The notes beneath the pieces were generated by a model. It saw only the letters and a list, made by a program, of their open reading frames with translations, did no database searches and had not been told where the DNA came from. DNA of 64,000 nt, taken from the NCBI GenBank assembly GCA_037043015.1, contig CM073322.1, positions 23,216,364 through 23,280,363 on the forward strand, read 5' to 3'. A program made the position numbers and the translations under genes. This document shows, piece by piece, positions 2,654 to 58,767 of the stretch (positions are counted from its first letter, which is position 1; each line of letters begins with the position of its first letter). This stretch comes from Bryum argenteum (taxonomy: Eukaryota; Streptophyta; Bryopsida; Bryales; Bryaceae).

Positions 2654-4815
2654 TTAGCATACAGGGAACTTATACTTTGTTTCACTCTTCCACAAGGAGA
2701 TAGCATCTTCAATTACACCATCATACTCCTCATCCGGTCCCTCCAAGGCAACTCTAAGCAAACAATCCAGGTTTTTACTTCCCAATTTGTTTCTAACACG
2801 AGTTTTGATTAAATTTTGTATACTGAAAGCTCTCTCACAGGTAGCGGTGGACACACACTGCACTCTAGCAATCTCAGCCAAAACAAGCAAGTTTGGGTAT
2901 CGTGTTTGTAGGGCATGATTCCATGTGATCATACCCCACAAATCACGGAAGTTTTTATCTCCCCATTCCGTCGTGCACTGCAACTTAAAAGACAGAAATT
3001 CACGCTTACAAGCCTGCACGTCAAGGAAGGGGGGGAAGGAAAAACCTGAATGGGACCGGTCCTCTCCATACAACTGGAGCAACCTGTCTAATTCGGAAAC
3101 TCCCCAATTCTGCAGACCCACTTGCTTAGACGGCATATTAGAGGGGTTCAGAATTTTAAAACACGAAAGCATATCATTGTCCTTGAAACGAGCATCGAGA
3201 CCTGCGCAAACTGCCTCCGCAAATGCTTGCTGGAATGCCAGCGCTTCTTCCAAGTCTGTTCCTAGTCGGGACCTACACATTGCCACATCGTGAAACATAT
3301 TGCCTCTAATCGCCTCGACAAACTTACGCATATACCCCGAAAGGCCCATACTCGGGAGGATGTGGTAACCACTACTCTCGCTAAAAGTTGCGGCGTTCAA
3401 ATCAGAGTTTCCACAAGAAAAAGCATTCGGATTTGGGCAATTTACATCAAGCACAATGCTACCTATAGAAGTGACATCTACGAATTTGCACTGGAAGACT
3501 TTAGACAACATAGCTAGACAATGCAATATGTCCAAGAAGAAAGAACAAAATGTAGATGATTTTAAATTGGGACTACCTCTCCAAGATAGACGCTCCCCAC
3601 CATCATCAACATCACGAAAAAAAAACCAAGACCGACTCAAAAGAATCACACAAGGTACTCACAGATCGCCAACGACTCAACCACCAATCTTATGATAGCG
3701 TTTCATGCACTTTCGGCATCGAATGTCGTTACTCGCAAGGTCAGTAAGTGCGTGCTTACGCTTACTCGACTTGTGAAAAAAAAAAGAAGAAATCGAATTC
3801 AAGAGGTCATCAATTTCACCAAAATTACCTTGCGAGTTGGCGCCTTGTGTGCATCGAGTGCCGCCAAGTTGGTGCGGTGTGCTACGCAATGGGTGGCAAG
3901 CAGGTAAGGGTTTACCTCCTTCTTGATGCGTGTGGCCACTCCAGTGTGGCAGCCAGTCATCGTCGCTGCTCCGTCACTGCCGAATCCCAAGAACTTCCGC
4001 AAATCTAAACCCCAAGCGCGCAGCTGTGAAATGAGCGCTTCATAGATCACAACAGCATCTTTTCCTCCGTCGACCGGCAGTAACCCCAAGAACAAGGTCA
4101 CCGGCAGTCCCTCCTCAACGATGGTGCCGAAAACCACCAGGTGCCCTATGACGCTAATATCGGTGGACTCGTCAACCATTATACCGTAGAAAGAAGAATT
4201 CCGAACACGATTGAGTACCTGCTTCTGGATTACAACTGAAATGCAAGCCATTATATTCGCACATGACTTCTCATCTTGATACAAAGATAAGGTCATCGGG
4301 GCTTTCACACTCACGAGCAATTTGCATAAAGAAGGGAACTTAGAGTAAGGTAAGGATTGCTTCCCCAAAAAGTATGCAGCCTTCACGAGTGAAGCCACAG
4401 CTGAGTCGCATGCTTTTTGCCTACTGACGATCACCTTCTCCATCACCTTCCCGCCGCTGTTCATGGCCCAAGCAAGGCGTCTGTTCGACGGAGCGGGAGT
4501 GGTCTTGAAAGCGCTCACCTTAAAATTCTTGAGCCGTCTTTGGCGTACGCCGATCGACCGCCTTTCTCCCGCACACCCTGAACAACACCCCCCAACATCT
4601 CGCGCAAAATCGCAGCCCATTCAAACCGAATGTTCCCACTATTCCTTCCACAAACCTTGAGCAATCTCAAGATCCGAAGGAGGAGGTCGATCCAATGTGG
4701 AATGACCGGTTCGGGAGAAGACTCATTCTCGCACTCAAGACACAATCTCAATGACATCCACATCCTTCGAGCGTGAGAAGTAGTGTGACGTCAATGACCT
4801 CTGCCGTTTCGCCAT
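2654..4815 (-). pseudogene. hAT transposase (ZNF862-like), frame-broken
   Basis: A likely start at 4815 gives a lysine/arginine-rich N-terminus (MAKRQRSLTSHYF). The middle part (4620-3799) contains the RNase H-like core with MVDESTDIS, then FGSDGAATMTGCHTG and ATHCVAHRTNLAALDA, which are typical of the ZNF862/KIAA1586-like hAT branch. A following segment (ISSFFFHKSSKRKHAL, about 3750-3800) is in another frame. The final 331 codons (3649-2654) hold the C-terminal dimerisation region, with STATCERAFSIQNLIKTR. The pieces lie in order but in at least three frames, so either introns remain to be defined or about two or three frameshifts and stops have accumulated. I judge it non-functional or nearly so. 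It would cut and paste the surrounding element. Confidence 0.85.
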
Positions 4816-35839: not shown

Positions 35840-37462
35840 CGGAAGGGGGTGTAGGAAGGGGACTAACTAATTGGGATGTTGGTCTAAGTTTCAAGGAATG
35901 CTTTGAAGACAAATATTGGGGAAATTTCGATCAACTTACACTCATGATAAAGTTGTTTTCACCGGACCTAGTGAGGGTCCTCCACGTGTTTTTAGGAAAA
36001 TCTCTCCCGTGTTAGACTTGTTCCACAAATTCTTCACTAGGAAGACTTTGAGGAAAATAATGAGAGAATCTAACCGGTATGCCGCTTCTATTGACCCGAC
36101 CACGGGAATGACTAGGGGGCCAAAAGATTGGTGGAGTTTGACCGTGCCGGAGTTGGAGGCATGGTTGGGCATTAGTATACTAATGGGGTTAAAAATTTTA
36201 CCTAACCGTAGATGCTATTGGAAAAGTAGCGAGAAATTTTTCTATTGTCATACTATTGCTAACACTATGAGCATGAAGAGGTATGAGGCTATAACGAAGT
36301 GTTTACATATTCATGATGATTCCATGGCCCCCATGGATAGAAATGACCCTAACTTTGAGAAATTAGTGAAGTTGAGGTGGCTAATTGAGGAGGTGAGGCA
36401 CCAATGTGTGTCAAACTGGAATCTTGGTCAATACGTAACCGTTGATGAGCTAATGGTGAGATACAAGGGAATCTACGGCCATGGCATGAAGCAATACATG
36501 CCTAACAAGCCGGTAAAATTTGGATTCAAGATTTGGGCGGCCGCAGATTCGAAATCCAAGTACCTTTACAACTTCCAAGTCTACACAGGGGCGGATTTGA
36601 AGAAAAATCTTCGAACGGCGAAACCGGGGGAAGCAAAAACGGGGTACGAAGTGGTGATGGGATTGATGGACGGATTGCATGGGCGGGGCCACTTTGTCGT
36701 CACCGACAACTTCTTCACTTCACCGAAACTCTTCGTCGATTTGCACTCCTTGGGCACATACGCCACGGGCACCGTGCGTTCCAACCGGATTGGTTTGCCG
36801 AGCGACTTAGTGGACAAGCGGAGATGGGTGAAGCAACCCCAAGGGAGCTCTGATTGGCACATGCATTGCACCGGTACGTTATGTTTTCTTGTTTGGGTAG
36901 ATAAAAACCGGTGCTTTTATTGTCAACCCATGCGGAGCCGTTGTCACCGGATCCGGAGGTGCCTCTCACGGTGCCCCGTTATACTCGTGGGAGGACGGAG
37001 CACATACCCACCTCTCCTATCCACTTGGAGTACACCCGCATGATGCGGGGTGTGGATGTGAGTGACCAACTCCGGGGAGTCTACACGGCCTTATCCAAGA
37101 CCCACAAATGGTGGCATAGGATATTCATGTTTTTGGTAGATTTATCAATTACGAATGCATGGATCATTCACAAGCGGGAGAGTTTGGATTTGGGGCTTGG
37201 TGCTATGAACCATTTAGACTTTGTCACGGCATTGGCATTCTCTCTCATGGAGAATTGGCGGCGGGACCGGATGGGCGTGGTCTCTCTATGCACTTATACC
37301 CCGGGCACTCATGGGCTTGAGAAGGTTCCCCGAGCTAGACACCAATGTGCCACGTGCAAAGACAAAAAAAAACTTACAAATTATGTTTGCAAGGATTGTG
37401 GTGGTGCATGGTATCACATGGGGGATTGTTTCAAGAAGTCACACTTTGTACTCCGAAGGTAG
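35840..37462 (+). pseudogene. piggyBac transposase (DDE_Tnp_1_7), near-complete with frame changes
   Basis: The catalytic domain shows all three expected aspartates: YVTVDELMVRYKG (about 36437), VVTDNFFTSPKL (about 36704) and MRGVDVSDQLRGVY (about 37043). Flanking family motifs include WWSLTVPELEAWLGI, THKWWHRIFMFL and a C-terminal Cys-rich finger (CATCKDKKKLTNYVCKDCGGAWYH). The frame changes near 36907: GATAAAAACCGGTG appears to have five A where six would give the family sequence VDKKPVLLLSTHAEP. A second frame change lies near 35920, at the N-terminal side. The protein as written cannot be made in one piece, but so few lesions suggest recent activity or a sequencing slip in a homopolymer. 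It would excise and insert the element at TTAA. Confidence 0.88.
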
Positions 37463-42651: not shown

Positions 42652-43040
42652 TTAAACTTGAAGTTGAAAACTATAAACTACCCCCGAGTGAGCAGCTTTT
42701 GATGTTGTGTGGTTCTTGAGCCTCCTACCTCATGTCTATAACTGCGAGGCATGTCATGAGAAGAAGTTGCATGAATGTGTCTATCATAGTTGCAGTTTAT
42801 GTTTGAGTAAATACCAAAGCATATTGTTCCAATTAAATTATGTTATTTTTGATTATTGATAAAATGCATATACTCGTCAATAGTAGCAATGAAAAGTGCA
42901 TACGTAAACCCATGCAGAGAAATTTTGCCTTCTCATTGCGGATATGTTGTCATACGTTATCCCTTGTTGTGTAGAATTTTCCTTGTAACAGGGGATTGTG
43001 CGAATATTATCCGCAGCCTTCCTCTAGTTTCAAGTTTCAT

Positions 43041-43351
43041 TGCTATTTTCAATGATTCTTGCAGACGTTTATGTACTAGAGAGCGGTCAGGGTTCTGCCG
43101 ATTCTGCAGATTAGCGAGCCCGTAGGGCGAAATTACGGCGACCGGTGACGTGCTACCACCCTGATGTTGTCGCCACATTTGAGACATACTTTGCTCACCA
43201 ACCGAGATGGACTCCGGAAGAAATCGAGAAAGGCGTTCGTCCGTTGTTTCACAGAGCAATAGACGGCATATTGAGAGATCCTGGTGTTGTAAGTGTGTTC
43301 CACAAGATCTCATTCTTGATCTGCCAGTGTAGTTGCATGATCGAAGAGTAG
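43041..43351 (+). CDS. Short plus-strand exon-like fragment
   Basis: From 43145 the frame gives HPDVVATFETYFAHQP, then RWTPEEIEKGVRPLFHRAID. It could be closed by a donor-like GTAAGTG at 43290. An acceptor-like TTCTTGCAG lies at 43058-43066. I recognise no domain. It lies at the left edge of the palindrome block and points toward the minus-strand genes. Confidence 0.3.
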
Positions 43352-43983
43352 TCAGTGCAGACACAATCGGATCTAGGCGGCACTCATTGAACTGTTATTT
43401 GTAACGGGTATTTAACTAATTCTGGACAATTTGACAGTCCAGAAATCAATCGGCTCCCATCCGACACACCTCGAAGGAGCAAAACAAGGCAAGGTAGAGA
43501 ATGAGAATGATTGACATTATTAGCAAGTCGGAGAAAATATAGATGATAACACTCTTGGAGTTAGGAAACAAATCCGTTTCATTAAAAGAATAAGCGAATA
43601 TTCCAAACGAAGCTCGTCCCACTAGCATGTGGTATCGGCGCGCAGCCGACAGCACTAACTTCGTATCAATAAATATTACAACACCCTATATAATATACAA
43701 CAACACTAGGTATCGAAGCAGACAGAAGTTTAACATAGGTGAACTGCAGCGGTGTCGGCTCGCAGCCGATAAGTAGCAACGCGACTCCATCATCAACTTC
43801 CTCCTTTCTGGCGCTCCATCTTCAACAATCCAGGATATTAATCCCGGGAAAATCTCGATTTGAAGACCAACAGCGATAAGTCGACGAGTGCGAGTGCTGA
43901 CCGACTCATCGCAGGTTGTGCTCCACCGGCTGATCGCGTGAAGTGTCGGCTCGCAGCCGACAGGCATGCAGACTAAGTAAAAC

Positions 43984-44655
43984 CTAGGAACAGTGCGATC
44001 TGAGAGGAACACCGTACTTGAGGGAATGAGCAACTTCATAATGAAGTTGACCGGGTCTATTAGAAAGACTCATATATTGACTAACAGATTCGAACTGGTA
44101 TAAGGGGTAGATGAACGGAAGAATATCTGTAGCTACATTGGGAATAGTAGTACTTGAAGACGACAAATCACCTCGAAAAGGATAAGGCATGTAGCAGGCA
44201 GAATCCGGCGCCAACCTTAATGCCAGGGGAGAAACATCAACGAGGAGAAGCTGGTCGGGCCTGCACACCTCACGGGAACGACGCTTGCAATAGAGAGTCT
44301 TCAAGAGCTTGTAACACCACGGAAAATTCATAGGACGATCACAAAATTCTCTACCATAAACAAAGGATAGCCTGTCGATGACGCCAGAAGGTAGAATGTA
44401 AGATAGAAGAGGCTTCAAGTCACGCATCGGCATCGTACACCAGAGACCAACATGGAAGCGCTCCAACAACATGGCAAACAACTTCGTTACACCTGGCCGC
44501 TTGATTACATTACGGTGAGCATTCCAACGATCCGTCGGAATATTAGGGCTGATGTAGCATAGCAATCCAGATACGGATAGAATGATACATTTCTTGGAGG
44601 TAGAAGTACCAGCAATGTCATAATCCAAACGGCAGTCACCCTGAACAATACAAGC
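43984..44655 (-). CDS. FCP1/NIF-like phosphatase domain with degraded catalytic motifs
   Basis: The exon opens after an acceptor TTATTACAG and reads ACIVQGDCRLDYDIAG, then KKCIILSVSGLLCYI at the position of the HAD motif I, RPGVTKLFAMLLERFHVGLWC at motif II, and LLLVDVSPLALRLAPDSACY at the place of the DDSP motif. The general layout is that of an FCP1/small CTD-phosphatase domain. The motif I aspartate and the second aspartate of motif IV are both replaced (SVSG, VDVSP), so catalysis is unlikely. It lies downstream of a second, better kept copy at 45251 on the same strand. It could be a pseudo-enzyme domain of the same protein or a decaying duplicate. The hydrophobic sequence preceding the acceptor is intron, not a signal peptide. 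Confidence 0.6.
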   Translation of the reverse strand, partial: ACIVQGDCRLDYDIAGTSTSKKCIILSVSGLLCYISPNIPTDRWNAHRNVIKRPGVTKLFAMLLERFHVGLWCTMPMRDLKPLLSYILPSGVIDRLSFVYGREFCDRPMNFPWCYKLLKTLYCKRRSREVCRPDQLLLVDVSPLALRLAPDSACYMPYPFRGDLSSSSTTIPNVATDILPFIYPLYQFESVSQYMSLSNRPGQLHYEVAHSLKYGVPLRSHCS

Positions 44656-45250
44656 CTGTAATAAGTCAGAATGATGAATAGAAACGCAATAGACAGCAAT
44701 AGATTGATAAGGGCAGGCATATCGGCCGGCAGCCGACAAGAAGACAAAACCAAAATTAACATAGAAGAAAACAAACAAGAGAGTCAATGAGTAAAGACGA
44801 CAAGGAGACAATGACAAGAAGAAGCCATGGATCCTAAAGCAAAAAGGAAAACAAAAGAAAATACCAAACATAAGAACCGATACCAAGAAAGGGAATATGA
44901 TAGAAAACTCTCCACGTTAAGATTAAGAGAGTCTTCACAAATTAAACATCCTTGAAATATACAGTTAAGAAAAAGTCTCGAGTGGAACCCTGGAAAATTT
45001 ACAGAACTAGAAGAAAATCTAAGTGATCTACAAATTCTAGCTCGCTAGATCATCGAATTGGATGACTGAAAAATCTATACACCCATGCTAAGGACATGTA
45101 TTCATATGGTAATCTATGTAGGGTAACAAGAGGTATATCGGCCGGCAGCCGACAACTGGAGCATCTTGAACTTGCTCCACCATCTTGAACAACTCGAACG
45201 CCAAGGTCGAGAAGTAATCAATCCATGATCACTCCCTCACTTGACCAAAA

Positions 45251-46005
45251 TCAAGCGTCCTGTACTGCTCGTACAACGGATTTCCCGGGAGCATACGGCG
45301 CTTCCCTAACTCTGCGTCTTTGAAGCATAAACTCGGGAACATTTTTCCGAGAATTATAGAGGGCGTATAATGAGAGGCCGCAACCCTCTCGAAAGTAAGG
45401 TGGCCACTCACATTCTCGAGAGGTCAAAGTGCGTGTGTGAGGGTGGAACGCATTGTAAGGATTGTTCAAAACGTTCTTGTAGGGGGAGTCGTCGATGAGA
45501 AGCATGTTCTCGGGATTAGCACCACGAGCCTTGAGTTCAGGACTCATATCAAGAAGATGATCAATCGACTTAATAAAGAAGGGCCGGTCAGGATTATGAG
45601 GCTCCCGGTAGCAACTCCGGAAGCAATATCTCTGATCAAACTCCAAGATGTTCCTAGGGAGCCTTGGAAAAACAGAGCGAATAAATTCGATCCTCGGAGT
45701 AAGGTTCTTCAGAGTGACCGAGGACCAGAAACAAATTTGCCAGTCTGCATCGACGCAAAACTGTAGCACTGAGTGAAGGCCAGGTCTTGCCCTTGCCTCC
45801 TCCTTCTGCCACCGGGGACGTTCACCACCTTTAATGATCCTACGAGGAACGTAGTGAATGAGAGTGCCATTCACGTCGAAAAGAATAAAATATTATCGAC
45901 TGGCTACCTGCCCTCCAGATACGAGAGGAGTCGATATGGAGGTGCCCGGCCGCGATCCATGAGAAGCGGAGCCCACGAACTCCTCGTTCTCAGATTCACC
46001 TGACT
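45251..46005 (-). CDS. FCP1/NIF-type HAD phosphatase domain
   Basis: The exon starts at 46005 after TCTCTTGCAG with an acidic linker (ESGESENEEFVGSASHG), then the phosphatase domain begins near 45890: FILFDVNGTLIHYVPRR carries the motif I aspartate in the D-x-N-G-T form found in plant FCP1-like proteins. ICFWSSVTLKNL is motif II, PFFIKSIDHLL supplies the lysine, and MLLIDDSPYKN is the DDSP motif. The domain runs to about 45300 and is of usual length (about 190 aa). One in-frame stop lies between linker and domain (about 45893), so either a small splice event is missed or the copy is damaged. Family members remove phosphate from Ser/Thr, classically on the RNA polymerase II C-terminal domain; the substrate here is unknown. 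Confidence 0.7.
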
Positions 46006-46413
46006 CTGCAAGAGATTAGGGCATATGTACAATAAGCAAAAGAGCAGCAAGAATTAAACAACAAAGTGAGCCACGAGCGATACAGAGGTGGCAGTGGAAA
46101 CCAATAACATCAAACACCATGACAGAAGGGAGAAGAATAGTGCAAAGAAAAGACATGAAGACTTGTCGGCTGGCAGCCGATATGCCGAAAAACACTGTTG
46201 AGAGAAATCGACATCGGAGACAAGGAATACAGGCGGAAACGTGAAACGATAATAGGGAGTCGGCTGGCAGCCGATACAGTATTACAGGGGAAGGACCTGG
46301 CCGAGCACATTGCAACCAGGAGATTCTAATACCATATGCAGACTAGAACCTAAAATGCGTATGCAATGGTGAGAAGAGACTATATACAAGAAACGCCGTC
46401 GTCTAGGACAAAC
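46006..46413 (-). other. 408-bp intron with two palindromes
   Basis: GTTTGTCC donor and TCTCTTGCAG acceptor with a long T-rich tract between. Palindromes lie at 46164-46182 and 46258-46276. Confidence 0.65.
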
Positions 46414-47008
46414 CTTCATGTAATTGTTGATGCTGCGGGGAAGCATGATCCGCCGCAGGTGGAGACAGAGCCTCATTCGGGGCGTCGATGGCGAACTCAT
46501 TGTCGTCTACTAGGGCCGCCTCGTTTTGGGCGCTGATGTCATACACGTCGTCCTCCTGGAGAGCGTCCTCATTTGTTGCGCTGATGTCGTTAGCGTCGTC
46601 CTCCAAAAGAGCCGCCGATTCAACAGCAACATCCCTTCGTGTATAGAAGGCCTGCACTGCCGAGTGAGCCCTCTGACCTTCCCTACATGAAGGAGCGGGA
46701 GATGTCGGCTGCCGGCCGATAAGGGCAGGAACTGATTGGGAAGGACTCTGACGGGCACGGGACGGAGGAACCTGCTCCACGACAATAACCTCTTCCTCCG
46801 GGGCGTTGTGCAAATCAACCTGCATCGTGGTCGCAGCACATACAGACGCGGTCTGGCCGTAGTATCGGGAGGCGGGCGACGACATCATTACAATGTGTCG
46901 GCCGGCAGCCGATACAGGAGAAGGGATAAGTGTAGCAGTGGATTCAGGTGGAGCCGTCGGCGTGGTTGCAGGTGTGAGTGACAAAGGAGTAAGGTCAATC
47001 TCATCCAA
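46414..47008 (-). CDS. Low-complexity acidic region of the minus-strand gene
   Basis: A Ser/Pro/Thr-rich segment (DEIDLTPLSLTPATTPTAPP) is followed by a set of imperfect acidic repeats of about 17 residues (LLEDDANDISATNEDAL, LQEDDVYDISAQNEAAL, VDDNEFAIDAPNEAL). It ends at a donor GTTTGTCC after 46414. The next exon is the FCP1-like one at 46005, so this is probably the linker ahead of the phosphatase domain. Two palindrome copies (46703, 46896) lie within it and would be translated as IGRQP and SAAGR. No folded domain is evident. Confidence 0.5.
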
Positions 47009-47028
47009 CGCACTTCCTGAATCCTAAC

Positions 47029-50000
47029 ACTGCAGGCGGGACGTCGTCCGGGGTTGGCGAGCTCGCGAGACGAGATCGAGGACCAAAGATCGGTCTCCAT
47101 ATCCTCGGAAGACGACGGTGGAAGCTCGACCCTATCCAAGTTGAGTCCCTTCGCACGTTGGATCGCCCGACTGACGTGGTCCCGAGTTACGACGAACTCG
47201 ATCACGGACCTCCCATTTCTCTGCAAGACCATGAACAAGAGTAAGAGACAGAAGAGAACCGAACAAGGAGAAACAGACAAGTATTAGGAGGTGTCGGCTG
47301 GCAGCCGATACAAAGCAAAGGAGAGGATGCCTTACCAATCCAAGCTCGGTGACGTTTCCGCCACCCCAGACGTTGATGACGGTGACCTTCTTCGCGGTGA
47401 GAGTTGGCTTCAAAGAACTTCTCGGCGTGTCATGGTCGACACCGCGAACCCCCTGTTCCAATCGACAAAGACTTTCGGAGATGCCTGGAACCAATCGACT
47501 GGCTTGGCGATTCCAATATACTTCCTGAAAGTAGTCCAACGATCAACATCCCCGCGTACCTTTGGGTACGTCATGTTGAGCGTAACGAGCGGGGAAGATT
47601 CCGTCACCGACTTCTTGAACCCTCCACGAAGACACGGCTTGTAATAGACCGTCTGGACATACCACTCCGTATCTTCGGTTGTCCAGACAGCACAGAGAAG
47701 ATCCCGTTGCTTCGCGCTCGTGATGAACAACATCGGGATAGGATCTGGCCAAGTCGGAGCGACGTCGTCGTCGTCCATCGTGAGGTTCTCATCCGTGAAT
47801 GGAACCTTCGACCGTTCTGCAAGCGCACGAAGCTCCGACCTACTGGTTGGAACTGAGACTCCGCCATGACTGTACCCGAAGTAAACGATTAGGAGTGGGT
47901 CCTTAGCAATTCCCTCATGGCCAACAGCTGCGTCAATCACGTGCAAGACTTCTGCAACTGTGTCCGCGAATTTGCACTCGAAATGCGCCTTCTCGGCATC
48001 GACCTCCTCCGTCCTAACCTCGACTGCGCGATACGATTGCGGGATGGTGCTGAAAATGGGCGGCGCAACACCGTTCTTCGACTTGTCGATCGTCGGATTC
48101 ATTCTTGGCCGGGCGCGTCCATTGAGCCATTCATTCCCATCGGTGAATTTCTTCGGTCCGTCCGGATGTTGCGAACGACACTCGGGGTGAAATGATGCTC
48201 CTTCGCCAACTTGTCCCACTCCGAGTCAAGGTACGGCGTCGAGTTTGCATCCTTGCAGGGAAGCGGATGCTTCTTTATCTGATACATAAGCTCGTTCATA
48301 ATAACCCGGTCGAGCTTCTTGTCGCGGCACCAATCCGGCAGTGTGAGTCTGTCCTTCGTCCTGCTGTTGGCCTTGATGCAGACACGATTTGCGATCACCT
48401 CCGCTGCAAGCTCTTCAAGGTCGCAGTCACGAAGACCGAGTGTGGGTACAAGGTCAGTCTTCGTGATGTTCGAGATTGGCGTCGCTGACAATCGGCCCGC
48501 TCCTTTCCCGTCGTCGCCAATGAGTTCACCTGCTTCCCAGGCATTGAAGACCTCAATCCAAGTATTCCAGGCCTTGTCACCCACGAATACTAAAGGGAGC
48601 TTCGTGGACACCTTCTCGTTCACGAAGTGCGCCATGACTTGCGCCTTCGCAGCCTGATGAACATCCATAAACCATTAGTTGTATGAAAGCAAAATGAAGA
48701 GCTGTCGGCTGGCAGCCGATAGCTCTGGATTAAAGAAATGTGTCGGCTGCCGGCCGATAGAAAATGCAGAAGGTAACCATACCTCGAAGGCCGGCGACGG
48801 CTTCCCGCCTCCCTTGTGTGGCTCGGGGCTCCCGAGACGCTTCCATGCCGCCCTCCCGAGTTCCGCGCACGATCGGAAGTTCTCTTTGGCGACCTTCTCT
48901 GCGATATTGAGATTAAGGGCGTTTGACACCCTCACAAGATCGATGGGGTCCCTTGAGAACACAGGGATGATCTCGAATTCGAGAAGCTCCTTCTTGGCAT
49001 CCGATCCCTCGGGGTACTCGTCCGCCAACTGGCGGCAGTATCCATCAGATGCGACCACCGATAATATACCAGTGGACGGTAGGGTGTTGCCACCAGGGGA
49101 CTTTGGGGGCGGTGTCGGGGTCGGTGTCGTTGAGCTTCCACATTTCCAACTCCCCTGGCATAAAATCCATTACAACCATCATCCCGTGCTCGGTTTCAAG
49201 TGGTTCCGCTTAAGCGGGATACCATGGATCTCGAGCTTCTTCCCGATCGCCCGTAGCCCCTTGTAGATGGCCTTCACTGCGAAGAACATAACAAATGAAT
49301 AATCATGAATCGGATATGATGATCGGAGGATGTATCGGTTTGCGGCCGTCTACACGAAAGCGAAACCTCGTAAGATCGGTGAGAGAATCAAAATACCTGC
49401 CCCAGACGATCTTTCGCGATGCGTCTCGTTTTGAGCTCGTCCGGAGCGATGTGAAGCTTCTCGCTAGGAATAACCCCCAGCACCTCCGCTTCTTGTAGGG
49501 GAAGAGATGACCAAGACCGGTCTCCAAAGCCTTGTAGATTGCGTCGATCTCGACGTCCTTCATCTTCGAGGTCATTTGGTTGCCCTTTTGACGGGGCCTC
49601 GTCCAAGGTATACTCGATGGCATCCTTAGTCGATTTTGCCCGTCTCTTGGGCTTGCTTGGATCTTGTGACCCTGCACGTCTTCATCGGCGTCATCGCCTA
49701 CATCGATCATGTCTCTGCTGCAGTCGCTTCTTCTTTGAAGGAGTGGGCTTCTCTTCGACGACGACGGAGCCTCGGCCAGCTGCAAAGATCGATGGCGGTG
49801 TTTACTGACCAACCTAGCGTAGTCGATAGCGACTGTGCAGGCCTCCATGAACTCCTCGATGGTAGCAGCGCAGCTCCCATTGAAGGTCATGCCACCTTAT
49901 TCGCCGGCTCACCGCAAACCGCCTCGGTGCATTGTCTCCACGGCATTGATACGGCGATGTACTCGGTCGGGCGGAGGATCTCTCGGGGTAGGTAGGTGAT

Positions 50001-50894
50001 GAGAATGTCGACGTGCTCCACATTCTCCAAAATTTCGAAGCACATCCCCGTCCCGGGGATCATATTACCCTTGTAGAGAGTACGAGCAAGCAATCTCGAT
50101 TCGCCGGGTGGGGAGGACTCTCGGCAGATAGTCCCCATCACCGGATGATGGGATTACACGCCCATCTTGCACGCGGGACTATGTCTCCATGCTTGACATC
50201 CGTGTGTGCAAGTTCCACACTGCGAGCGATCAGCTAGGGGTGGTGGTTTTCTCGAGAATAAACACATGTGAGGGTATATTAGCACACGCACATTATTGTA
50301 TATCAAGAAAGAGTACCATATCGGTTTGCCGACCGATAGCAACCATGGTATCGGTTTGCCCGGCCGATATAGCGACAATGCAAAAATATACATCGCGACA
50401 CTGCAATAGTTACGATGATAGTCTAATGACCTTCAGCAAATAGCATGCTATTGGCTGCCAGCCGACAGAATAGAAGCTATCGGCTGCCAGCCGATACACT
50501 AAGCAATGTAGCGCTAAGGCAGAGGAGCCACTAACGGTCTGCGAGTAAACTATGATTTACAAGAGAAAACAGGCTATAGCGCGATAGCTATCATTGCCGG
50601 TAAACACACTAAGATCAGTATTCTAAGATAAAACATCACTGAGCCGTTTACCGCTACCGATAGCTTGTGAGCTATCAGCTGCTAGCCGAAGGCTCACGAG
50701 CTATCGGTGGCGGACAAAATTACTGAGGCTATCGGTCGCGCCGACAAATTATTTCGCATATATCGGTGCCGGTAAAATTGACACACAAGGCACAAGAAGA
50801 TGACGAAAAGCTCAAAATGAAACGACGCCCGGTCAAACGGCGCAAATCAAACGTCACAAAAGAGTGAGTCGACCTACCTCTTCGACGACGCCAT
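47029..50894 (-). CDS. Unrecognised multi-exon protein on the minus strand
   Basis: A plausible start is ATG at 50894 (MASSK) with a donor after 50878. Coding segments follow at about 50141-49890, 49890-49303, 49058-48783, 48653-47336 and 47220-47029. Two introns are firm: 48654-48782 (GTATGG to CATCAG, phase 0) and 47221-47335 (GTAAGG to TTGCAG, phase 0). Readable parts include FEILENVEHVDILITYLP, FSRDPIDLVRVSNALNLN, LPLVFVGDKAWNTWIEVFNA, RVIMNELMYQIKKHPLP and VTLNMTYPKVRGDVDRW. I recognise no known domain. At least two frame changes occur inside 48219-47410, so the gene is decayed or more complex than read. Its company suggests a transposon-encoded protein. Confidence 0.5.
47221..47335 (-). 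other. 115-bp intron with a central palindrome
   Basis: GTAAGG donor next to 47336, pyrimidine-rich tract and TTGCAG acceptor next to 47220, coding phase kept (LGL then RNGRSVIEF). The palindrome TGTCGGCTGGCAGCCGATA lies at 47292-47310, close to the donor. Confidence 0.75.
48654..48782 (-). other. 129-bp intron with two palindromes
   Basis: GTATGG donor and GTTCATCAG acceptor, joining SPAFE to AAKAQVMAHF in phase 0. Copies of the palindrome lie at 48703-48721 and 48741-48759, 19 bp apart and of mixed type (CTGGCAG and CTGCCGG centres). Confidence 0.78.
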
Positions 50895-51860
50895 CGCAAA
50901 TTATCGGGCCGGGCGAGTGCTCGGTGTCGGCCGTGGTGCGTAGATTGCCTCCTCCTCCCGCAAAAAGTCGTCGGGCCGATGCGTAAGGAATGTCATTCTT
51001 CCGCCTCCGCTCCCTCCAGCAGGTCAGCTTACCGAGCGTAAGAAATGTCGGCCTTTGCTTGAAACCCTAAACCCTAAAACTAAACCAACAATGCCAAAAA
51101 CAAAAACGGCTAAGGCAAGAAAGCAGAGAGGAAAGGTGAGAGCATGAAAGCAGAGAGGAGAGAAACAGCAAGGAAGAAGAGATGAGGCAGCGCGTAGCGA
51201 ATGAGAGGAGGAGAGAGCGCGTAGCGAATGAGAGGAGAGAAACAGAAGAGAGGAAATGCAAAAGTGTGGAGAGAGCAAAAGTGAGAGGAGAGCGCAGAAG
51301 TGAGAGAGGAGAGCAAATTACAAATGAGAGCAAATTAGGGAGGGTGAACGGTTTACCCCCTCCGGAATTTTCGCAATGATGGCTATCGGCTGCCCGCCGA
51401 TTTGCGCCTTGCCCGCTTTTCAATCGGCTTGCCCGCTCTCGAATCCGCTTGCCCGACCGCCAAAACTTTACTCAAGCTTCGCGCCGCAAAACGTCATTTC
51501 GAATTTCTTCATCCATTTCATCATGCTTTTCATCCTGCCTTGCAATTAGCCCTCCAAAAATTCAAAATCATTTGAAATTTGATTTTGAAATCTTCTTGAT
51601 TTGAGCGCCATCCACGCTCTGTCGTCTCAGATGGCTATCCATTCCCAACTGTTTCTGACATTTTATTTTATTTCTCCCGTGTTTCCTGACGCTCTGAGCG
51701 ATTTGCTCTACTGTTTTTGTAGTTTTCCCTGGCCAGAAATAGTCAAGAATTGCGTCATTGTGTTCCTCGTGTTAGTGCGCTTCTTTCTATATAGAGAGCG
51801 GTAGATAGCAGCCTTTTATTACTTCAATTTGCACGATTTAATAGCTAGAGGCTCAATACC
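50895..51860. promoter_or_regulatory. Shared divergent promoter region of the palindrome block
   Basis: The minus-strand set starts near 50894 and the plus-strand set begins after about 51860, so this roughly 1-kb interval should drive both. It contains a purine-rich stretch on the plus strand with AGAGGAGAGA repeats and GCGTAGCGAATGAGAGGAG twice (51190 and 51220). A pair of telomere-like CCCTAAA units lies at 51064-51077, and one degraded palindrome near 51384. No coding sequence is recognised. Confidence 0.5.
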
Positions 51861-52009
51861 CTGGTATTAGACGCCAGCCGACATTGTGAATGTCGCCAGC
51901 CGATACGATTCCGTAGGACTCAGTCGGATCTCCTCATATCGGCTGCCAGCCGATATAGAACTATCTCGTCTGCGTCATTGTCCTGTCTCCCGCGAGCTTC
52001 AGATCAAGG

Positions 52010-52212
52010 TGTCGGCCGGCAGCCGATACCTCAGGTGGTTGTGTCTACTGCAGCTGTCTCATTATTTCCTACGTCTCCTCAACCTTTTAGATTCGCAATT
52101 GTGTCGGCCGGCAGCCGATACCTCAGGTGGTTGTGTCTATTGCAGCTGTCTCATTATTTCCTACGTCTCCTCAACCTTTTAGATTCGCAATTGTGTCGGC
52201 CGGCAGCCGATA
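52010..52212 (+). repeat. 92-bp tandem duplication bounded by palindromes
   Basis: TGTCGGCCGGCAGCCGATA begins at 52010, 52102 and 52194. The two 73-bp intervals (CTCAGGTGGTTGTGTCTA... ATTCGCAAT) are identical except for one base. The repeat ends five bases before a candidate start codon at 52218. Confidence 0.92.
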
Positions 52213-52217
52213 GATCA

Positions 52218-53260
52218 ATGAAGAGATCATGCTCCATCATGCTGGAAACCGAACCGATTGATAGCTTTCTCAAGAACGGCGGATCCGGGAGATGGCGTAT
52301 AGAGAAGGGCGCAGTTGTCGCTCTGTCTTTCGCAAAATTTTATTACGCTGGTACTGCTTCCATCAACCGAATTATCTCGCGAAAGCCATTTCTTTTGGAC
52401 GTCCATGTTATTGACGTCGCTCCAAATATTGAGATGATCATTCCGTTTCCCACTCCTAGCGTTAAGTTTCTTAGTCAGTGTCCTGGTAACAACATTACAT
52501 GGGACGTGAATGACGTGAGACCCTTCGTTGATAACCTCGATGAGTCACCCGAAAGCATATCGGCCGCCAAATGACACCGGCGCATTAGATGAGAAGCCCA
52601 TAAATCAGTTCCTCACTCTCTCTGTTAACATGGAGGTTGCTCTATTGCATGTTGATGGGACCGATCATCACTGTGTCGGTGTGGGCGTCATCGTTGAGTG
52701 CTCGCCTAAGGGCACCTGGGAGGGTTTTCGCGTCCCGCATAGCTTCTTTGCAATTGTCAAGCTCACTACTGTGTATAAGGACTTTGTTGGTCTTGTAGCT
52801 TACTGTGAGAATCCTTCTCTCACTCTGCTTGGTGAGTGCCTTGGGTACGAAATCCTTTGGAGCGGTTACAAACTTCGTCCCCTTGACGCTACGCCGCTGA
52901 ATGGCAACTCTATCGGCGGCGGCCCGATACACCCCACGCCGAGGAGTGTCAAGGTTGAACCAACCAAATATGTCGGTCTTAAGGACTCACCCTCAGCAGA
53001 TCACTGTGGTAGTTACGGTAACCCGCATCATTCAACCGGTCTCTCTCATTTTGAGGGCGGCGACATCGCGGGTCCGGGACGAATCCGCCAACCCGCGTCG
53101 ATGTCCTCTCCTCTCAAGTGAATGAATCTGCTAGTGATCTTCATGCTACGCTGTTTGACAACGGTATTTTCTCGCAGCCCTCCTCGGATAGTTACGCGCC
53201 GCAGTAATGTCAACTTTCGACCCTCTGTCTCACGCGCGCACTTTGAACATTTAAGACCGG
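52218..53260 (+). CDS. N-terminal part of plus-strand gene: two DUF8039-like repeats
   Basis: From the ATG at 52218 (MKRSCSIMLETEP) the first frame gives VVALSFAKFYYAGTAS, then DVHVIDVAPNIEMIIPFP and NITWDVNDVRPF. It stops at 52574. A second frame from about 52590 gives a similar pattern: EVALLHVDGTDHHCVGVGVI, then RVPHSFFAIVKL and GYEILWSGYKLRPL. The succession of a variable-strand start, a VH-type middle, a hydrophobic-Pro stretch and a final W-x-V-x-x-V/L-R-P resembles the DUF8039-type domain found in plant CACTA-like transposon proteins. That comparison is from memory of the pattern and is tentative. Change of frame between the repeats means a hidden intron or a frameshift. Confidence 0.5.
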
Positions 53261-53276
53261 GAACCTCTGGCGGTCC

Positions 53277-54163
53277 TTGATCGGCCCGACCGAGGAGGAA
53301 CAAGTCTTTGCGACTTCATCGAACGAGGATCATACCTTATTTGGGCAGGCGATCATTCAAGTCTGTCTTCCGGATGAAGCTTGCGATGAGGATCTTCTTG
53401 GCGATACAAATGTCGGAGTAATGTTCATATCAGAGCACGATACCCTACAGCTCACGACAATGAGATGGCCTCTTTCGCGGACTCGACTTGAAGGCGGTCA
53501 ACTCCTGTCAGACATTGTCATGCTCTGCTCTGAGGCCGCTCAGAATTCCACCTTCGATCATCCGGGACTTCAGGGCGTGCCTCGGAATCCCTACAGATCC
53601 GTTCGTCGGAGACTATTGTCAAAGGAGCAGCCCGCTGGGTCTAGGCTTAAGTCGAAGTCCTCGGATGATGAAATTCGTAAGGTTAGTTCGCGATGTCTTT
53701 GCAAGAGTAGGTCTTTGTCGGACGTTTCCGTGGGAGTCTACTCGAATCCTTCGTCGTAAGTACTATGCTTGCTCTTTTGAAATTAGAAGAGAGACAGGCG
53801 TATGCCGTTCAAAGTCAACTTCATGTCCATGAACCGGGAGGCGGGAAATTCATCACGCTTGAGAATGTTGAGGTGCGCGAAAACGCTTGGTATATCATTC
53901 ACGGTGTCTCGGATCGCCTTACCACGTCTACAAGGTCAGCGGCGATGGGTGGATCGGTGAGCGGATCGCATGGCAATTCTCGGAGGCTGTTCGTCCACGC
54001 CCGCATACGATTCGAGGCGAGCCACCTGCGAGAAGATTATTGACGAGAATGCGGACCGATGCCTAACGAGTTCGGGCTTGTTGGAAATAAGCGAGTTGAC
54101 AACTTTGAAGGTTGTTCCATCTGCGCTCAATCGGGGGACACCATGCGCGAGCAAGTGAATCAA
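53277..54163 (+). CDS. Third repeat and linker of the plus-strand gene
   Basis: From 53290 the frame gives EEEQVFATSSNEDHTLFGQA and, further on, GVMFISEHDTLQLTTMRWPL, possibly a third repeat of the preceding kind. A Ser/Arg-rich part follows. The segment ending at 54163 (EFGLVGNKRVDNFEGCSICA ... REQVNQ) joins the next exon through a confirmed intron. Frames change about twice on the way. No catalytic motif lies here. Confidence 0.45.
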
Positions 54164-54443
54164 GTAAGTCCCAATCATTCGATTTCCTCTTCGTCCTCGA
54201 TGTCACGCCGGCCGATACACTATGTTGTTATGTTTCGATTGTTTTCAATTACATCTTACGACTTTAGCTTCTTACATCGATTCCTTCATGCCTTATTTAG
54301 TCAATGCTCACTACACAGCCAACCGCCGGCCGATACTCCGTTAGCGATTAGTTCCTGCTTATGTCAGGGCACTCCTGTCGGCTGCCGGCCGATAGGAGGC
54401 GTCGACCTGGATCATAACGACCTACCTTATCTCCTCCTTCCAG
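54164..54443 (+). other. 280-bp intron with palindromes
   Basis: GTAAGTCC donor and CTTCCAG acceptor joining VNQ to VNVKCHHK in phase 0. It holds one full palindrome (54376-54394) and two half-copies (CGCCGGCCGATAC near 54206 and 54323). Confidence 0.75.
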
Positions 54444-55520
54444 GTGAATGTCAAGTGCCACCATAAGCGGTCTCTCGACCCACCATCGGTCGGCCGGAAG
54501 AACCATTTCAAGAATGTCGAGGTTAAAGCTGTTGGGAGCAGCTTCTCGAAGTGTACTGAGTGTGACTTCCTTGTGGAGTGCATATCCAAGTACCCAAGGG
54601 GCTGTGATGAATGGCAGTCATTAGTCGATGACCGGAATCGCCATCTCAATTATCGGCGTGCCTGCCGCCATATATATGGTGGCTGGAGTTCCCAGTCCTG
54701 CGAGAACCCCTCTGAGTTTCTATGTATAATCCATGACAAGATGGATACCACGAAGACGGCCATTCCAAGAATGCAGAGGATTACTAAAGCCACTGCTGGC
54801 CTTGGGCAGATTCCGGTTTCTGTTACCGGCATGTTAACGCACGGCCACGCGGTGATGGTGCGTGACACACACTACTCCACCAAGCTCTCGGCGGGGATTC
54901 CAACTTCACCATCTCATCTTTGTGTCGTGTCTGCGAGCGCTTGAGAAGCCACCGTGCGTGAATCCCGGGAGCTCTTTCCCACACCTCCCACGAAACGACT
55001 TCTTCCAAGCTTTGCTACATGGCAAGTCCAGTGTGTTTCGCGATCGATCCCACCCGCCACCGGAACTCAATTTGGTCCTTCACAACCTGGACGTCCGCTC
55101 GTTCCGCTTCCTCGTAAGCTATTCCCGCAACTTGATAATTCCGCGAAGGACAATAAAAACAGATTTGTGATGGCCTTACGCTCTCCTTCTTGACCGCTCG
55201 GCGCATTTTTAAGAGAGGTCACTGTTGGGTTCCTCATTGTTGGCCACACTCACGAGGATATTGATGCCCATTTCGATTACCTATCCAAGCTCATCAAGCG
55301 GAAGAACACGTACGTTCTAGGCGATCTCATGAAGGCCTTTATGGACTCGCGAGAAGACGATCGCCTTCATTCCCGAATTCGTTCAAGAGGTTGCGGATTT
55401 CAAATCCTCGTCAAGGACTTCCATCACGACGGTGTCAACAAAATTGTTGGACTTGGTGATATGCATCTTTTCAAGTTACGGGTTGAAGAGGACGGTGACG
55501 ATCGCGGGCGGCTGTCATGA
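54444..55520 (+). CDS. DDE-like transposase core of the plus-strand gene
   Basis: The exon begins VNVKCHHKRSLDPPSVGRKN, passes a possible zinc-binding KCTECDFLVEC, and reaches FLCIIHDKMDTTKTAIPRMQ (54715-54775), a likely first catalytic Asp. A segment LGQIPVSVTGMLTHGHA follows. In another frame QLDNSAKDNKNRFVMA (55128-55175) supplies a likely second Asp, and GFLIVGHTHEDIDAHFDYLS (55227-55286) a third acidic site. I recall the same trio of motifs in unannotated proteins of scattered eukaryotic transposons, but cannot assign a superfamily. Frames change between motifs, so the copy is probably decayed or has short introns I have not placed. Role inferred: the catalytic protein of the palindrome block. 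Confidence 0.6.
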
Positions 55521-55639
55521 GGTACAAGCGAAAATCCACCGATTCTTCATGGCTCCCACCCGGTCCCCCGTCAAGATGTGGACTTGACGAGCATGGAAGA
55601 CCTAGAATTCCATCCGCGACCCACGTCCTATTCCATTTA

Positions 55640-56460
55640 AGCCGTTATGGGGCGTCACGGAGGTGAACCCCAACAAGTTGAACTCTGTGAAGGAGCAAGC
55701 TCGTGCCTCCGAGTGCAATGACAAACAGGGTTTCATCAAGCACGGCATATCTAAGTTCATTGAGTTTTGGAAGTCCGGTATGGCGCGTAATGCAGGCGAT
55801 CTGCGAGGAGATGGTTTGGACCCGGTTGGTTCTTGGGAGCGTATCAATCGAGAGATCAATTCACCATTACCGTCTACCCCGACGTTCTCGTAGAAGGATT
55901 TTGGCCTATTTCAGACTGGACTCGTGATCATTCTCGTGCCTCCCAAGATTCTGGATCTAGCTCTTCTTTCTCACAGGACATTACGCCTGAGGATGATGCA
56001 GATGCTTATCCTTACTGTGGTCCTGCTAAAGACCGACCGAGGCTCAACTTTAATCCATTCCGTGATGTTCTTCTTGGCGACTTCGTCTTATGCCGCCCCA
56101 GCGACGACCATTTCCTTCCTGTCTGGCTGGGGCGTGTCCTTGAGTGTGTTGATCTAACGCCTGGTCCTACCTATGGCAATTTCAAGATCGAATGGTGGAC
56201 CCCTATGCGAGCTAAGAAGGAAGGAAAAGCGATCATCGCTAGGGAGTGCTGGACTCGCCGCTGGCATAAGGAGCCTTGTCTTCCTCAGATTGTTAATGTC
56301 AACATTGTTCTGTTCTCTCATAGGATGCCGTCACATGCAAAGAAGGGTCCACCAGCTACACATATCATTCCCGAGCAGGCCGCTGCAGCTGCAATGTCTA
56401 ACCTTGAGGCCGCTGGAGCGCGATTCTCTAAGTTTGTTCATCATACATTTGTATCGGCTT
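55640..56460 (+). CDS. C-terminal part of the transposase-like gene with SH3/chromo-like segment
   Basis: The first part (NSVKEQARASECNDKQGFIK, then HGISKFIEFWKSGMARNAGD) follows directly on the catalytic region. From 55833 a frame of more than 200 codons gives QFTITVYPDVLVEGFWPISD, an acidic linker (EDDADAYPYCGP), then DVLLGDFVLCRPSDDHFLPV, WLGRVLEC and FKIEWWTPM. Small beta-rich domains of this type (a protein 'allowed to pass' its W-G-x-V and V-x-W-W core) often close eukaryotic transposase or integrase proteins and may contact chromatin. The coding signal fades after the palindrome at 56452. Confidence 0.5.
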
Positions 56461-56852
56461 CCGGCCGACACGCTTCATGTGACCCTCCCTCGCATCCTCC
56501 TCTCTCTACGGACTGCTCTGCACTTGTCATTTGCCGCCGGCGATCTCGATCTCATATGCTTTCCCACCTGCAACTCCGACCTCCTATCGGCTGCCGGCCG
56601 ACACCACGCTCTACCCGCTGGTTCTTTTCCGACTCACCTCACTACTGCGATTAGTGTCTATAATCCGTGCATACCCGTTGTGTTTCTGCTTCGGCATTCT
56701 CATCATTATGAATATGCTACAGCTCTTTCCTTTACTCTTGTTTTCGGCATTCCTATCCTTGGCAGTTGATTGGAGTATATTCATCGTTTTCACGTTTGTA
56801 GCGTCTATCGGTTGCTTTGTTGTACTTTCTCCTTCTCTATGGTTTACTGTTT

Positions 56853-57102
56853 CTCGGCTGGCGGCCGATATGTGACTTAGCTACCTATGGCTTTCCGATA
56901 CACTATAGCCTACTCTCTCTTTAATGAAGCGATCATTGTTTCGTACACTTTTAATGTACTCCGCTTTTCTCGGCTGGCGGCCGATATGTGACTTAGCTAC
57001 CTATGGCTTTCCGATACACTATAGCCTACTCTCTCTTTAATGAAGCGATCATTGTTTCGTACACTTTTAATGTACTCCGCTTTTCTCGGCTGGCGGCCGA
57101 TG
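56853..57102 (+). repeat. 116-bp tandem duplication bounded by palindrome variants
   Basis: CTCGGCTGGCGGCCGAT begins at 56853, 56969 and 57085. The two intervals (ATGTGACTTAGCTACC... ACTCCGCTTTT) are identical as far as I can read. It has the same architecture as 52010-52212 but a different unit. Confidence 0.92.
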
Positions 57103-57330
57103 TTGGACTTCTCTGTTCATGGCTTTGTATCCATGTATCCCTCTCAATCATATTGAATTGATCGTGTATGAATGAGTGCAACCTTTTGGATTCCTTTTCT
57201 AAGTTCGAGTTACGATATTGTTACTACTACTTCGTCATATTCCTTGGGTTTCTATCGGCGGCCGTCCGATACGGAATTTTAGTTAATGTGGGTTGGGGAC
57301 GGGAACAGTATTCTACGGTCTAAGGTTCGG

Positions 57331-57430
57331 GGTTTAGGGTCTAGGGTTCAGGGTCTTTAGGGTTTAGGGTTTAGGGTTTAGGGTTTAGGGTTTAGGGTTT
57401 AGGGTTTGGGGTTTAGGATTCAGGGTTTAG
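57331..57430 (+). repeat. Interstitial telomere-type repeat (TTTAGGG)n
   Basis: About seven perfect TTTAGGG units from 57356 to 57406, flanked by imperfect ones (CTAGGGTTCAGGG, TTTGGGG, TTTAGGATTCAGGG). This is the usual plant telomere unit. Non-telomeric sequence continues on both sides for kilobases, so it is an internal array. It falls at the right edge of the palindrome block. Confidence 0.95.
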
Positions 57431-57464
57431 CGGTTTTAGTTGTATTGGCCTTCGGCCGATATAA

Positions 57465-58767
57465 TTTAGATAGTTTTATGTTTTACATGCACTTTTTAAT
57501 ATATAATGCTTGATTTTCAATATATCTTGCTTGGTTTTCTATTATTTATTAATCTGCCATACATTTTGATACTTATGTTTTTAGTGAAAATATCCATAAG
57601 TTCGGAATTTGTCCATAATTAGTTAAATATCGGTTTTGTCTGTTGTAGTAGTGCTTTTCGTTAAGTGATTTTGTCAAGTTGCCTTTTAGAAGATCTGAAT
57701 CAAAGTAGTATCCATTCTTTCTCATCTGTTGTGGCTTAATTCATCAGCACATGTTTCATTAGTCGGTGACTTCTTGCACTTGTTTTCGGTGTTACCGGTG
57801 AGTTGGTATTCTGTGTTCTTGATTTAACCTTCGATTGATTGTCACCTTGTTCCAGTGGTATTCTAAGAGCCGTGTTGGATTGAAGTCCATTGCAAAATGG
57901 CTCAAACTCATGGTTGAAGGCATCTCTGGATGTGATGTAAGCAATATAACAAACAAAAGTGCTCGAGTCACGATTGTCAAGCGATTGAACGCTATGGGAG
58001 TTCCGTGAGATTGGCATGAAGTTGGTGACACACATCATCACGCGTGAAGGTTACATGAGATACGATCTGATGGTGATGGGATAGAGATGCGGGCCTTGCA
58101 AAACATTGCAAGTCTTTATTCACTCGAATCAAGGCGACATTTCTTGGAGTGCCGCTTTGCAATCTGAACGACAACGATACGAAGAAATCTTGATGGAAAG
58201 CCAACACCACCAAAACCTCTGTTTATAGAAGAACGCCATCTCCTTTTGAGATATTGTTCCTTTCGAAGGAGTTGCTACGGATGCCGTTTGAAGCGGCCGG
58301 CGCCTTGAGTTCCAACAAGAGTGCAATTATTAATCAATACCAATCATCTCCGTTTCGATTGGTGGTCAAATCCCGACGTTGTGGAGGAACTTGATCGTCA
58401 ACTCGATTTCTCACAAGAAGAAAGCCACGGAGATATCTCGTGTAGCCAACACTATTGGAAGTCTTGTCTTTCATGGAAATCTCAAAGAATCGTACAATTC
58501 ATCTCAATGTTGCGGAGCGCTGTTTCGCTACTACAATTCTCAAGAATTTGGCGGTCAAAGTAGCTATGAGTGAGAATCGAATATCGATACTCCGAGTAGA
58601 TTCATTCAAAACTTCATTCGATTTCATGGTAGTTGAATTTCAATCTGCACTTTTAATCGATTCCGATCTACTTGTTTCAATCTCGTTAGTTCAATCTACT
58701 TGTCTCATTGATCAAGATGCACTGTTGACTTCGTCTCATGTTTCCGTCCCGAAAATCAACAAAGAAT
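57465..58767. other. Right flank of the palindrome block, no gene recognised
   Basis: AT-rich to 57700, then mixed. A plus-strand stretch around 58350-58560 has frames such as NPDVVEELDRQLDFSQEE but no domain I know and no splice support. It could be a decayed end of the block. Confidence 0.4.

What the first reader, a model, noticed from the sequence alone, without database searches (positions are those of the whole stretch)
42900..57500. A large transposon-like block of an unnamed kind, with divergent transposase and phosphatase genes
Seen: two divergent multi-exon gene sets, a shared interval near 51 kb, GC content unlike both flanks, and a private 19-bp near-palindrome repeated over 14 kb. 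The plus side carries DDE-like motifs and the minus side two FCP1/NIF-like phosphatase domains. I know of no described DNA transposon that couples an FCP1-type phosphatase with such a transposase. Inference: a large element whose accessory phosphatase might act on the host transcription machinery or on its own transposase.
Basis: partly seen in the sequence, partly recalled or inferred. Interest (0 to 1): 0.85.

Follow-up and report, generated by a model that had tools for sequence, protein, structure and literature searches.

The report
Giant plant transposon carrying phosphatase-like genes
This stretch of a plant genome is one of many copies of a large jumping gene that carries, besides its own transposase, a gene resembling an RNA-polymerase-tail phosphatase and over two dozen copies of a private DNA signal, which hints at a way to influence host transcription or escape silencing.

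Summary
The block is a real, complete DNA transposon: 43,403–57,635 (14,233 bp), with inverted ends starting AAC and a 4-bp target duplication (TTGT). Ten of ten copies with both ends read (11 examined) show a perfect 4-bp duplication. The right half encodes a DUF7869 protein with a likely D-D-D triad (open over 677–678 codons in 3 of 9 sister copies, broken in the window). The left half carries two NIF (FCP1/SCP-like) domains and an unknown gene. In the capped hit lists these genes are linked far above chance, mostly in one geometry, in families down to about 30% NIF identity, so the coupling looks old. The 19-bp palindrome is real (28 sites, all inside the element, none in the coding core). 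A distant family has a related end sequence but a different private palindrome, which recalls the VANC/VANDAL motif systems of Arabidopsis. Corrections: 4-bp duplications, a DDD-like transposase and a plant host fit the known Sola superfamily, though homology could not be tested. 'Phosphatase' is doubtful: of eight aligned NIF domains seven have DxNG and one NxNG instead of DxDx, and the window's second domain lacks the nucleophile. Functions of NIF, middle protein and palindrome are inference.

The parts
43403..57635 (.). complete transposon copy, 14,233 bp
   Evidence: inverted ends, copy boundaries, 4-bp target duplication
43399..43402 (.). target duplication TTGT, left
57636..57639 (.). 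target duplication TTGT, right
43403..43432 (+). left terminal inverted repeat (AACGGGTATTTAACTAATTCTGGACAA...)
57606..57635 (-). right terminal inverted repeat (AACCGATATTTAACTAATTATGGACAA...)
45251..45892 (-). NIF (FCP1/SCP-like) domain A; FDVNGTL, WSS, K and IDDSP motifs; its 3' part is out of frame with the sister copies
   Evidence: Pfam NIF E 3e-6; copies; alignment
44185..44589 (-). NIF-like domain B, degenerate (SVSGLL instead of DxDGTL)
   Evidence: Pfam NIF E 5.7e-4, below cut-off; same motif in L003, L004, L005
47410..48674 (-). middle gene of unknown function (two overlapping frames in the window; open frames of about 520 aa in several sister copies)
   Evidence: kept in other families beside NIF; no Pfam match over its cut-off
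54396..56430 (+). transposase main exon, DUF7869 (right limit approximate); broken by stops and shifts in the window, open over 677-678 codons in 3 of 9 copies
54735..54737 (+). first aspartate of the proposed triad (IHDKMD)
   Evidence: alignment to intact relatives; position checked
55134..55136 (+). second aspartate (QLDNSAKDNKN)
55242..55265 (+). third acidic motif (GHTHEDID)
43633..57461 (.). 28 copies of the 19-bp palindrome, all outside the coding core, some in repeated units of 92 and 116 bp
50449..52212 (.). interval between the divergent gene sets with 7 palindromes, inferred shared promoter region
   Evidence: sites; promoter role is inference

Best explanation
The block is a cut-and-paste DNA transposon of a Sola-like kind (inverted ends of 27 bp or more, 4-bp target duplications, DUF7869 transposase with a likely D-D-D triad) that carries an old accessory module on the opposite strand: a NIF (FCP1/SCP-like) gene and a conserved gene of unknown function. 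Shown: ends, target duplications, many copies, three-gene linkage above chance in one main geometry at three levels of divergence, and a private palindrome kept out of the coding core. Inferred: the transposase cuts at the ends; the palindromes are sites for a dimeric element protein (the middle protein or the transposase); the NIF protein, perhaps a weak or dead phosphatase because of its DxNG motif, helps keep the element transcribed by acting at RNA polymerase II or at a phosphoprotein of the silencing machinery.
For: 4-bp duplications: 10 of 10 copies with both ends read, of 11 examined including the window; 7 of 9 further pairs; 4 of 8 exact in distant group A. Ends: 209 + 201 matches genome-wide, reversed control 0 + 0. 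Linkage: 66 of 134 NIF loci have a DUF7869 hit within 20 kb in back-to-back geometry, random mean 1.7 and maximum 7 of 300 runs; for 120 of these loci, within 60 kb, 86 pairs are back-to-back and 16 in other orders. 95 of 128 middle-gene loci have NIF downstream on the same strand within 8 kb, one pair in another geometry. NIF and DUF7869 identities to the window fall together (Spearman 0.75, 71 back-to-back pairs). Group A ends are related, ATGCAYTATTTAAGTATATATGGAC. Palindrome: 1,360 sites, control 0; 0 of 28 window sites in the coding core, 8.2 expected, P 7e-5. Group A palindrome: 809 sites, control 0; 58 of 63 checked lie within 20 kb of group A genes, 3.1 expected. Transposase frame: pN/pS 0.17 over three copies.
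Against: No Sola reference was available for comparison; the transposase frame has no solved relative by sequence. The NIF frame shows only pN/pS 0.56 among five close copies, weak evidence of constraint. The middle protein has no known domain, so a DNA-binding role is a guess. 68 of 134 NIF loci have no back-to-back DUF7869 within 20 kb in the lists used; the lists are capped, so these are undecided, not shown unlinked. A first count with the two top-150 Pfam lists gave 9 pairs against 5.1 random, maximum 13, not significant over all geometries. Most of the 150 listed DUF7869 loci have no listed NIF within 25 kb, so NIF may not belong to all DUF7869 elements.
Confidence: 0.72

Rival explanations
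1. NIF and the middle gene are passenger cargo captured once and copied along without function.
For: Gene capture by plant transposons is well known (PMC13317346, passages read); NIF-A pN/pS of 0.56 among close copies is weak; NIF-B lacks the nucleophile.
Against: Open NIF frames and HAD-type motifs persist in families only about 30% alike, mostly in one geometry with two other genes. Passengers should be lost or scrambled over such divergence.
Confidence: 0.12
2. The palindromes are internal binding sites of the transposase, used for synapsis or self-regulation, and have nothing to do with silencing.
For: Palindromes suit a dimeric binder, and the two families examined have their own motif together with their own end sequence.
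Against: Sites are spread over the whole 14 kb rather than near the ends, and occur in 28/29-bp arrays in the middle of a related element, more like the VANC target repeats (PMC5735166, passages read).
Confidence: 0.35
3. Two neighbouring or nested elements, one with the transposase and one with NIF, seen together by chance.
For: Of 27 paired left and right matches 10 lie 16-67 kb apart, which suggests nested insertions in this genome.
Against: One pair of ends and one target duplication enclose both gene sets; 16 of the 27 pairs lie at 10.66-11.08 kb.
Confidence: 0.01
4. A host gene cluster or a virus-like element rather than a transposon.
For: Multi-gene content and size; one capsid-like Pfam match at E 0.26, far below its cut-off.
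Against: Hundreds of end matches, target duplications at different sites, no viral family over its cut-off in the frames scanned.
Confidence: 0.01

Closest known systems
Sola DNA transposon superfamily
   Same: 4-bp target duplications, DDD transposase, inverted ends of variable sequence, some members over 15 kb, known from a moss (PMC10741241, passages read); the host here has a SAM_LFY match, a family of land plants and their kin (recalled)
   Different: No accessory NIF gene or repeated private palindrome is mentioned in the passages read; homology of DUF7869 to Sola transposases could not be tested here
VANDAL elements with VANC anti-silencing proteins (Arabidopsis)
   Same: Family-specific short motif repeated in non-coding parts, often in tandem repeats, with different motifs for different families (PMC5735166, passages read)
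   Different: VANDALs are non-TIR Mutator-like elements (PMC13317346, passages); the VANC21 motif is a 9-base non-palindrome; a VANC homologue was not searched for here; binding and demethylation untested
TET/JBP-carrying fungal DNA transposons (Kyakuja, Dileera, Zisupton, EnSpm, Plavaka and others)
   Same: DNA transposons with a captured regulatory enzyme gene that may counter silencing (PMC12730594, abstract and two sections read)
   Different: The captured gene here is NIF-like, not a dioxygenase; different ends and duplications
SCP1/FCP1/UBLCP1 phosphatases (NIF family)
   Same: A profile of eight NIF domains of this genome finds SCP-type and UBLCP1 structures (E down to 1e-6); WSS, K and DD motifs are invariant in the eight
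   Different: Seven of the eight have DxNG and one NxNG in place of DxDx; L068, a single-frame gene that is probably the host's own and 32% identical to the window domain, also has DxNG, whereas the host SCP-type L067 has DLDETL

Membership tests
Sola superfamily | 4-bp target site duplication | tested here: met
   10 of 10 with both ends, 11 examined; 7 of 9; 4 of 8 exact in group A
Sola superfamily | DDD transposase | tested here: inconclusive
   Three acidic motifs aligned to intact DUF7869 relatives; fold and catalysis not shown
Sola superfamily | Sequence homology to Sola transposases | not testable with these tools
   No Repbase or Sola profile held; Pfam calls it DUF7869 only
CACTA/CMC | CA..TG termini, 2-5 bp duplications (PMC12730594) | tested here: not met
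   Window family ends start AAC; the 4-bp duplications alone would be allowed. Group A ends start ATGCA
Kolobok / piggyBac | TTAA-specific duplications (PMC9587614, passages read) | tested here: not met
   Duplications vary, e.g. TTGT, TCAT, CCTT; one of ten is TTAA
FCP1/SCP phosphatases | DxDx(T/V) catalytic motif (recalled) | tested here: not met
   Seven DxNG and one NxNG among 8 aligned domains
FCP1/SCP phosphatases | NIF domain profile match | tested here: met
   Domain A E 3e-6 over cut-off; group A copy E 6e-18; domain B below cut-off
VANC-like anti-silencing system | Family-specific motif repeated in non-coding DNA | tested here: met
   two families compared
VANC-like anti-silencing system | Element protein binds the motif and removes DNA methylation | not testable with these tools
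   needs experiment

The most novel reading that the evidence does not exclude
A second, independently evolved sequence-specific anti-silencing system in land plants: Sola-like giant transposons whose middle protein binds a family-private palindrome and brings a transposon-owned FCP1-type (pseudo)phosphatase to RNA polymerase II or silencing factors, keeping the element expressed.
Probability: 0.22. Interest if true: 0.88.

Novelty: new variant of a known kind. Interest (0 to 1): 0.62.

Why it matters
If NIF is a working part, a transposon has turned a member of the polymerase-tail phosphatase family into its own tool and kept it through deep divergence, with many copies in one genome. The change of palindrome from one element family to another gives a natural experiment on how mobile DNA tells self from non-self, and would make anti-silencing outside Arabidopsis directly testable.

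Tried and rejected
Nested or chance neighbours: rejected by common ends and duplications. Virus-like element or host cluster: no viral family over a cut-off in the frames scanned, many copies. CACTA, Kolobok, piggyBac: ends or duplications do not fit. Structure of NIF-A from a single sequence: pLDDT 37.9, useless, so no fold search was made. phmmer of window NIF-A against solved structures gave only two weak hits to isopullulanase; the profile of eight did better. The transposase found one hit at E 0.21 only. The first linkage count with the two top-150 Pfam lists gave 9 pairs within 25 kb against 5.1 random (maximum 13), not significant over all geometries; seven of the nine were back-to-back, six of them at 15.4-17.1 kb. 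The protein-query lists gave the clear result. Papers: DUF7869 occurs in 0 papers of the held library, and the searches found none. Searches held 970, 112, 134 and 56 papers, of which only the top 15 of each were listed to me; none of the listed titles or abstract beginnings describes a NIF-carrying transposon. Passages of PMC6431247, PMC7466625 and PMC10294476 had nothing on it. The library lacks most subscription journals, so absence in print is not shown.

Counts to read with care: the 134 NIF loci are 120 that I made by merging fragments of the listed matches (152 in all), plus 14 group-A-like ones picked; the 128 middle-gene loci were merged in the same way (151 matches). Lists are capped at about 150 scored candidates, those at 40. 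The gene lists were compiled by hand, for contig C1 only (window-type genes only below 3.7 Mb); the sites checked are the first listed ones, 63 of 809 and 50 of 1,360. Of the 50, 24 also lie within 20 kb of group A genes, since elements neighbour each other; of the 63, 5 lie near no listed group A gene and 4 also near window-type genes. In one search two of the four group A pairs without an exact duplication agree in 3 of 4 bases by my reading. The coding core (4,559 bp) was chosen by me. The NIF alignment holds 8 of the 10 sequences first sent; L061 (stops) and L059 (not read in a proper frame) were dropped.
Full report
What is there. The genome is 258.8 Mb in 25 contigs and the window lies on C2. 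A SAM_LFY match (E 1.1e-28) points to a land plant or close kin (the spread of that family is recalled); a bryophyte is likely but is inference. Its ends are a 30-nt inverted repeat, 87% complementary. Where a copy's end was fetched, its match stops within 10 bp of these points. The window copy is flanked by TTGT on both sides. Of eleven copies examined including the window, ten had both ends in the fetched DNA and all ten show a perfect 4-bp duplication, in different surroundings. Nine further end pairs picked gave seven duplications; the two without lay 24 and 17 kb apart and may be wrongly paired or nested.

How many. A 2-kb probe from the left part has 41 matches, one from the right part 46, including pieces. 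Of 40 left matches 27 have a right partner on the same strand within 80 kb, 16 of them at 10.66-11.08 kb. The lists hold only the 40 best scored, so the 13 without partner are undecided. The end sequence with up to three mismatches occurs 209 + 201 times, the reversed control never.

Transposase. The plus side matches DUF7869. In three of nine sister copies the frame is open over 677-678 codons; the other six have shorter frames. One of the three matches DUF7869 at E 1e-42. Three acidic motifs, IHDKMD, QLDNSAKDNKN and GHTHEDID, align with IVDGMDQ, QADNCGRENKN and GHTHEDIDQ of DUF7869 proteins from other families with frames of about 1,000 codons. I read them as a D-D-D triad; that is inference. 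Among the three open copies pN/pS is 0.17. In the window the frame is broken by stops and shifts.

NIF genes. The minus side holds a NIF domain at 45,251-45,892 and a second stretch below the family's cut-off. Domain A keeps the HAD motifs, but the first motif is DVNG. Of eight NIF domains aligned (the window, six other repeated loci and L068, probably a host gene) seven have DxNG and one, L064, NxNG. Of the six repeated loci L060, L065 and L066 have a back-to-back DUF7869 in the lists; for L062, L063 and L064 none was seen. Domain B reads SVSGLL in the window and in L003, L004 and L005; the other four copies are shifted there. A profile of the eight finds SCP and UBLCP1 structures and, weakly, TIM50. 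The 764-codon frame on C3 (L068) also has DxNG and is 32% identical to the window domain, so the element may have taken a gene of that class. Activity as a phosphatase is open.

Middle gene. A frame at 48,099-48,674, continued in another frame to 47,410, has no Pfam match over a cut-off but is kept in the other families, down to 22-33% identity. Of 128 loci 95 have NIF downstream on the same strand within 8 kb; one pair has another geometry.

Do the genes travel together? Yes, as far as the lists reach. Of 134 NIF loci 66 have a DUF7869 hit within 20 kb in back-to-back order; random placement gives 1.7 (maximum 7 of 300). For the 120 loci from the protein query, within 60 kb, 86 pairs are back-to-back and 16 in other orders. 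The pairs span three levels: the window family, a second level (NIF 40-59%, DUF7869 mostly about 70%; one member, C1:1,604,635-1,619,150, has GGACAT in its ends) and group A (NIF about 30%, DUF7869 about 50%). The two identities fall together (Spearman 0.75, 71 pairs), which fits common descent of the module. A first, coarser count with top-150 Pfam lists was not significant over all geometries (9 pairs, 5.1 random, maximum 13), but six of those nine share one back-to-back layout at 15.4-17.1 kb and belong to further NIF types, whose ends were not tested.

Group A. The right end was found where its palindromes stop. The end sequence occurs 24 + 21 times, control 0, for example at C1:8,202,783 and 8,224,216, which enclose hits of NIF, middle gene and DUF7869. 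With three more bases it reads ATGCAYTATTTAAGTATATATGGAC; four of eight pairs have an exact 4-bp duplication. It shares most of the core TATTTAA-TA--TATGGAC with the window family.

Palindromes. The window family's 19-bp palindrome occurs 1,360 times genome-wide, control 0. The 50 sites listed, all on the first 3.1 Mb of C1, lie within 20 kb of window-type gene hits, and one 14.5-kb element holds 41, some in 28/29-bp arrays. In the window none of 28 sites touches the coding core (8.2 expected, P 7e-5). The 9.6 kb of group A right-hand DNA read has no such site; group A has ATCGGGSGATCSCCCGAT instead, 809 sites, control 0, 58 of 63 checked near group A genes. A private motif per family, in non-coding DNA, partly in tandem units, is what was described for VANC targets in VANDAL elements (PMC5735166, passages read).

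Mechanism and place. The best reading is a Sola-like cut-and-paste transposon with an old three-gene layout. The review PMC10741241 gives Sola a DDD transposase, 4-bp duplications, sizes mostly 2-9 kb with some over 15 kb, and names a moss as host (passages read). Membership is left open because no Sola protein could be compared. The palindromes most likely bind an element protein as a dimer; the middle protein and the transposase are candidates. NIF may help expression by acting at the polymerase tail or at a silencing factor, perhaps by binding rather than cutting. These last steps are inference.

Noticed in passing
window 35907-37043 (+): Long frame matching DDE_Tnp_1_7 (E 5.1e-62), probably a piggyBac-type transposase (recalled); another element close to this one.
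   Followed up: partly
window 2654-3658 (-): Frame with a hAT dimerisation domain (E 1e-6).
   Followed up: partly
window 12071-16173 (+) and 18550-22402 (-): Two pairs of long frames that look closely alike by eye in opposite orientation, probably a large inverted duplication; the two longest frames have no Pfam match.
   Followed up: no
G000 genome-wide: DUF7869 has 1,809 first-look candidates; all matches listed are over the cut-off, several with open frames of 1,076-1,099 codons (L041, L042, L053) and no listed NIF within 25 kb: further, perhaps active, families.
   Followed up: partly
G000:C1 (44 Mb): 88 of the 150 NIF matches listed lie on this one contig, a strong enrichment that may mark a repeat-rich or sex chromosome.
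   Followed up: no
L060-L063: Further NIF types with a longer insert after the DxNG motif; L060 and L061 come from loci paired back-to-back with DUF7869 at 16.0-16.1 kb. Their ends and palindromes were not examined.
   Followed up: no
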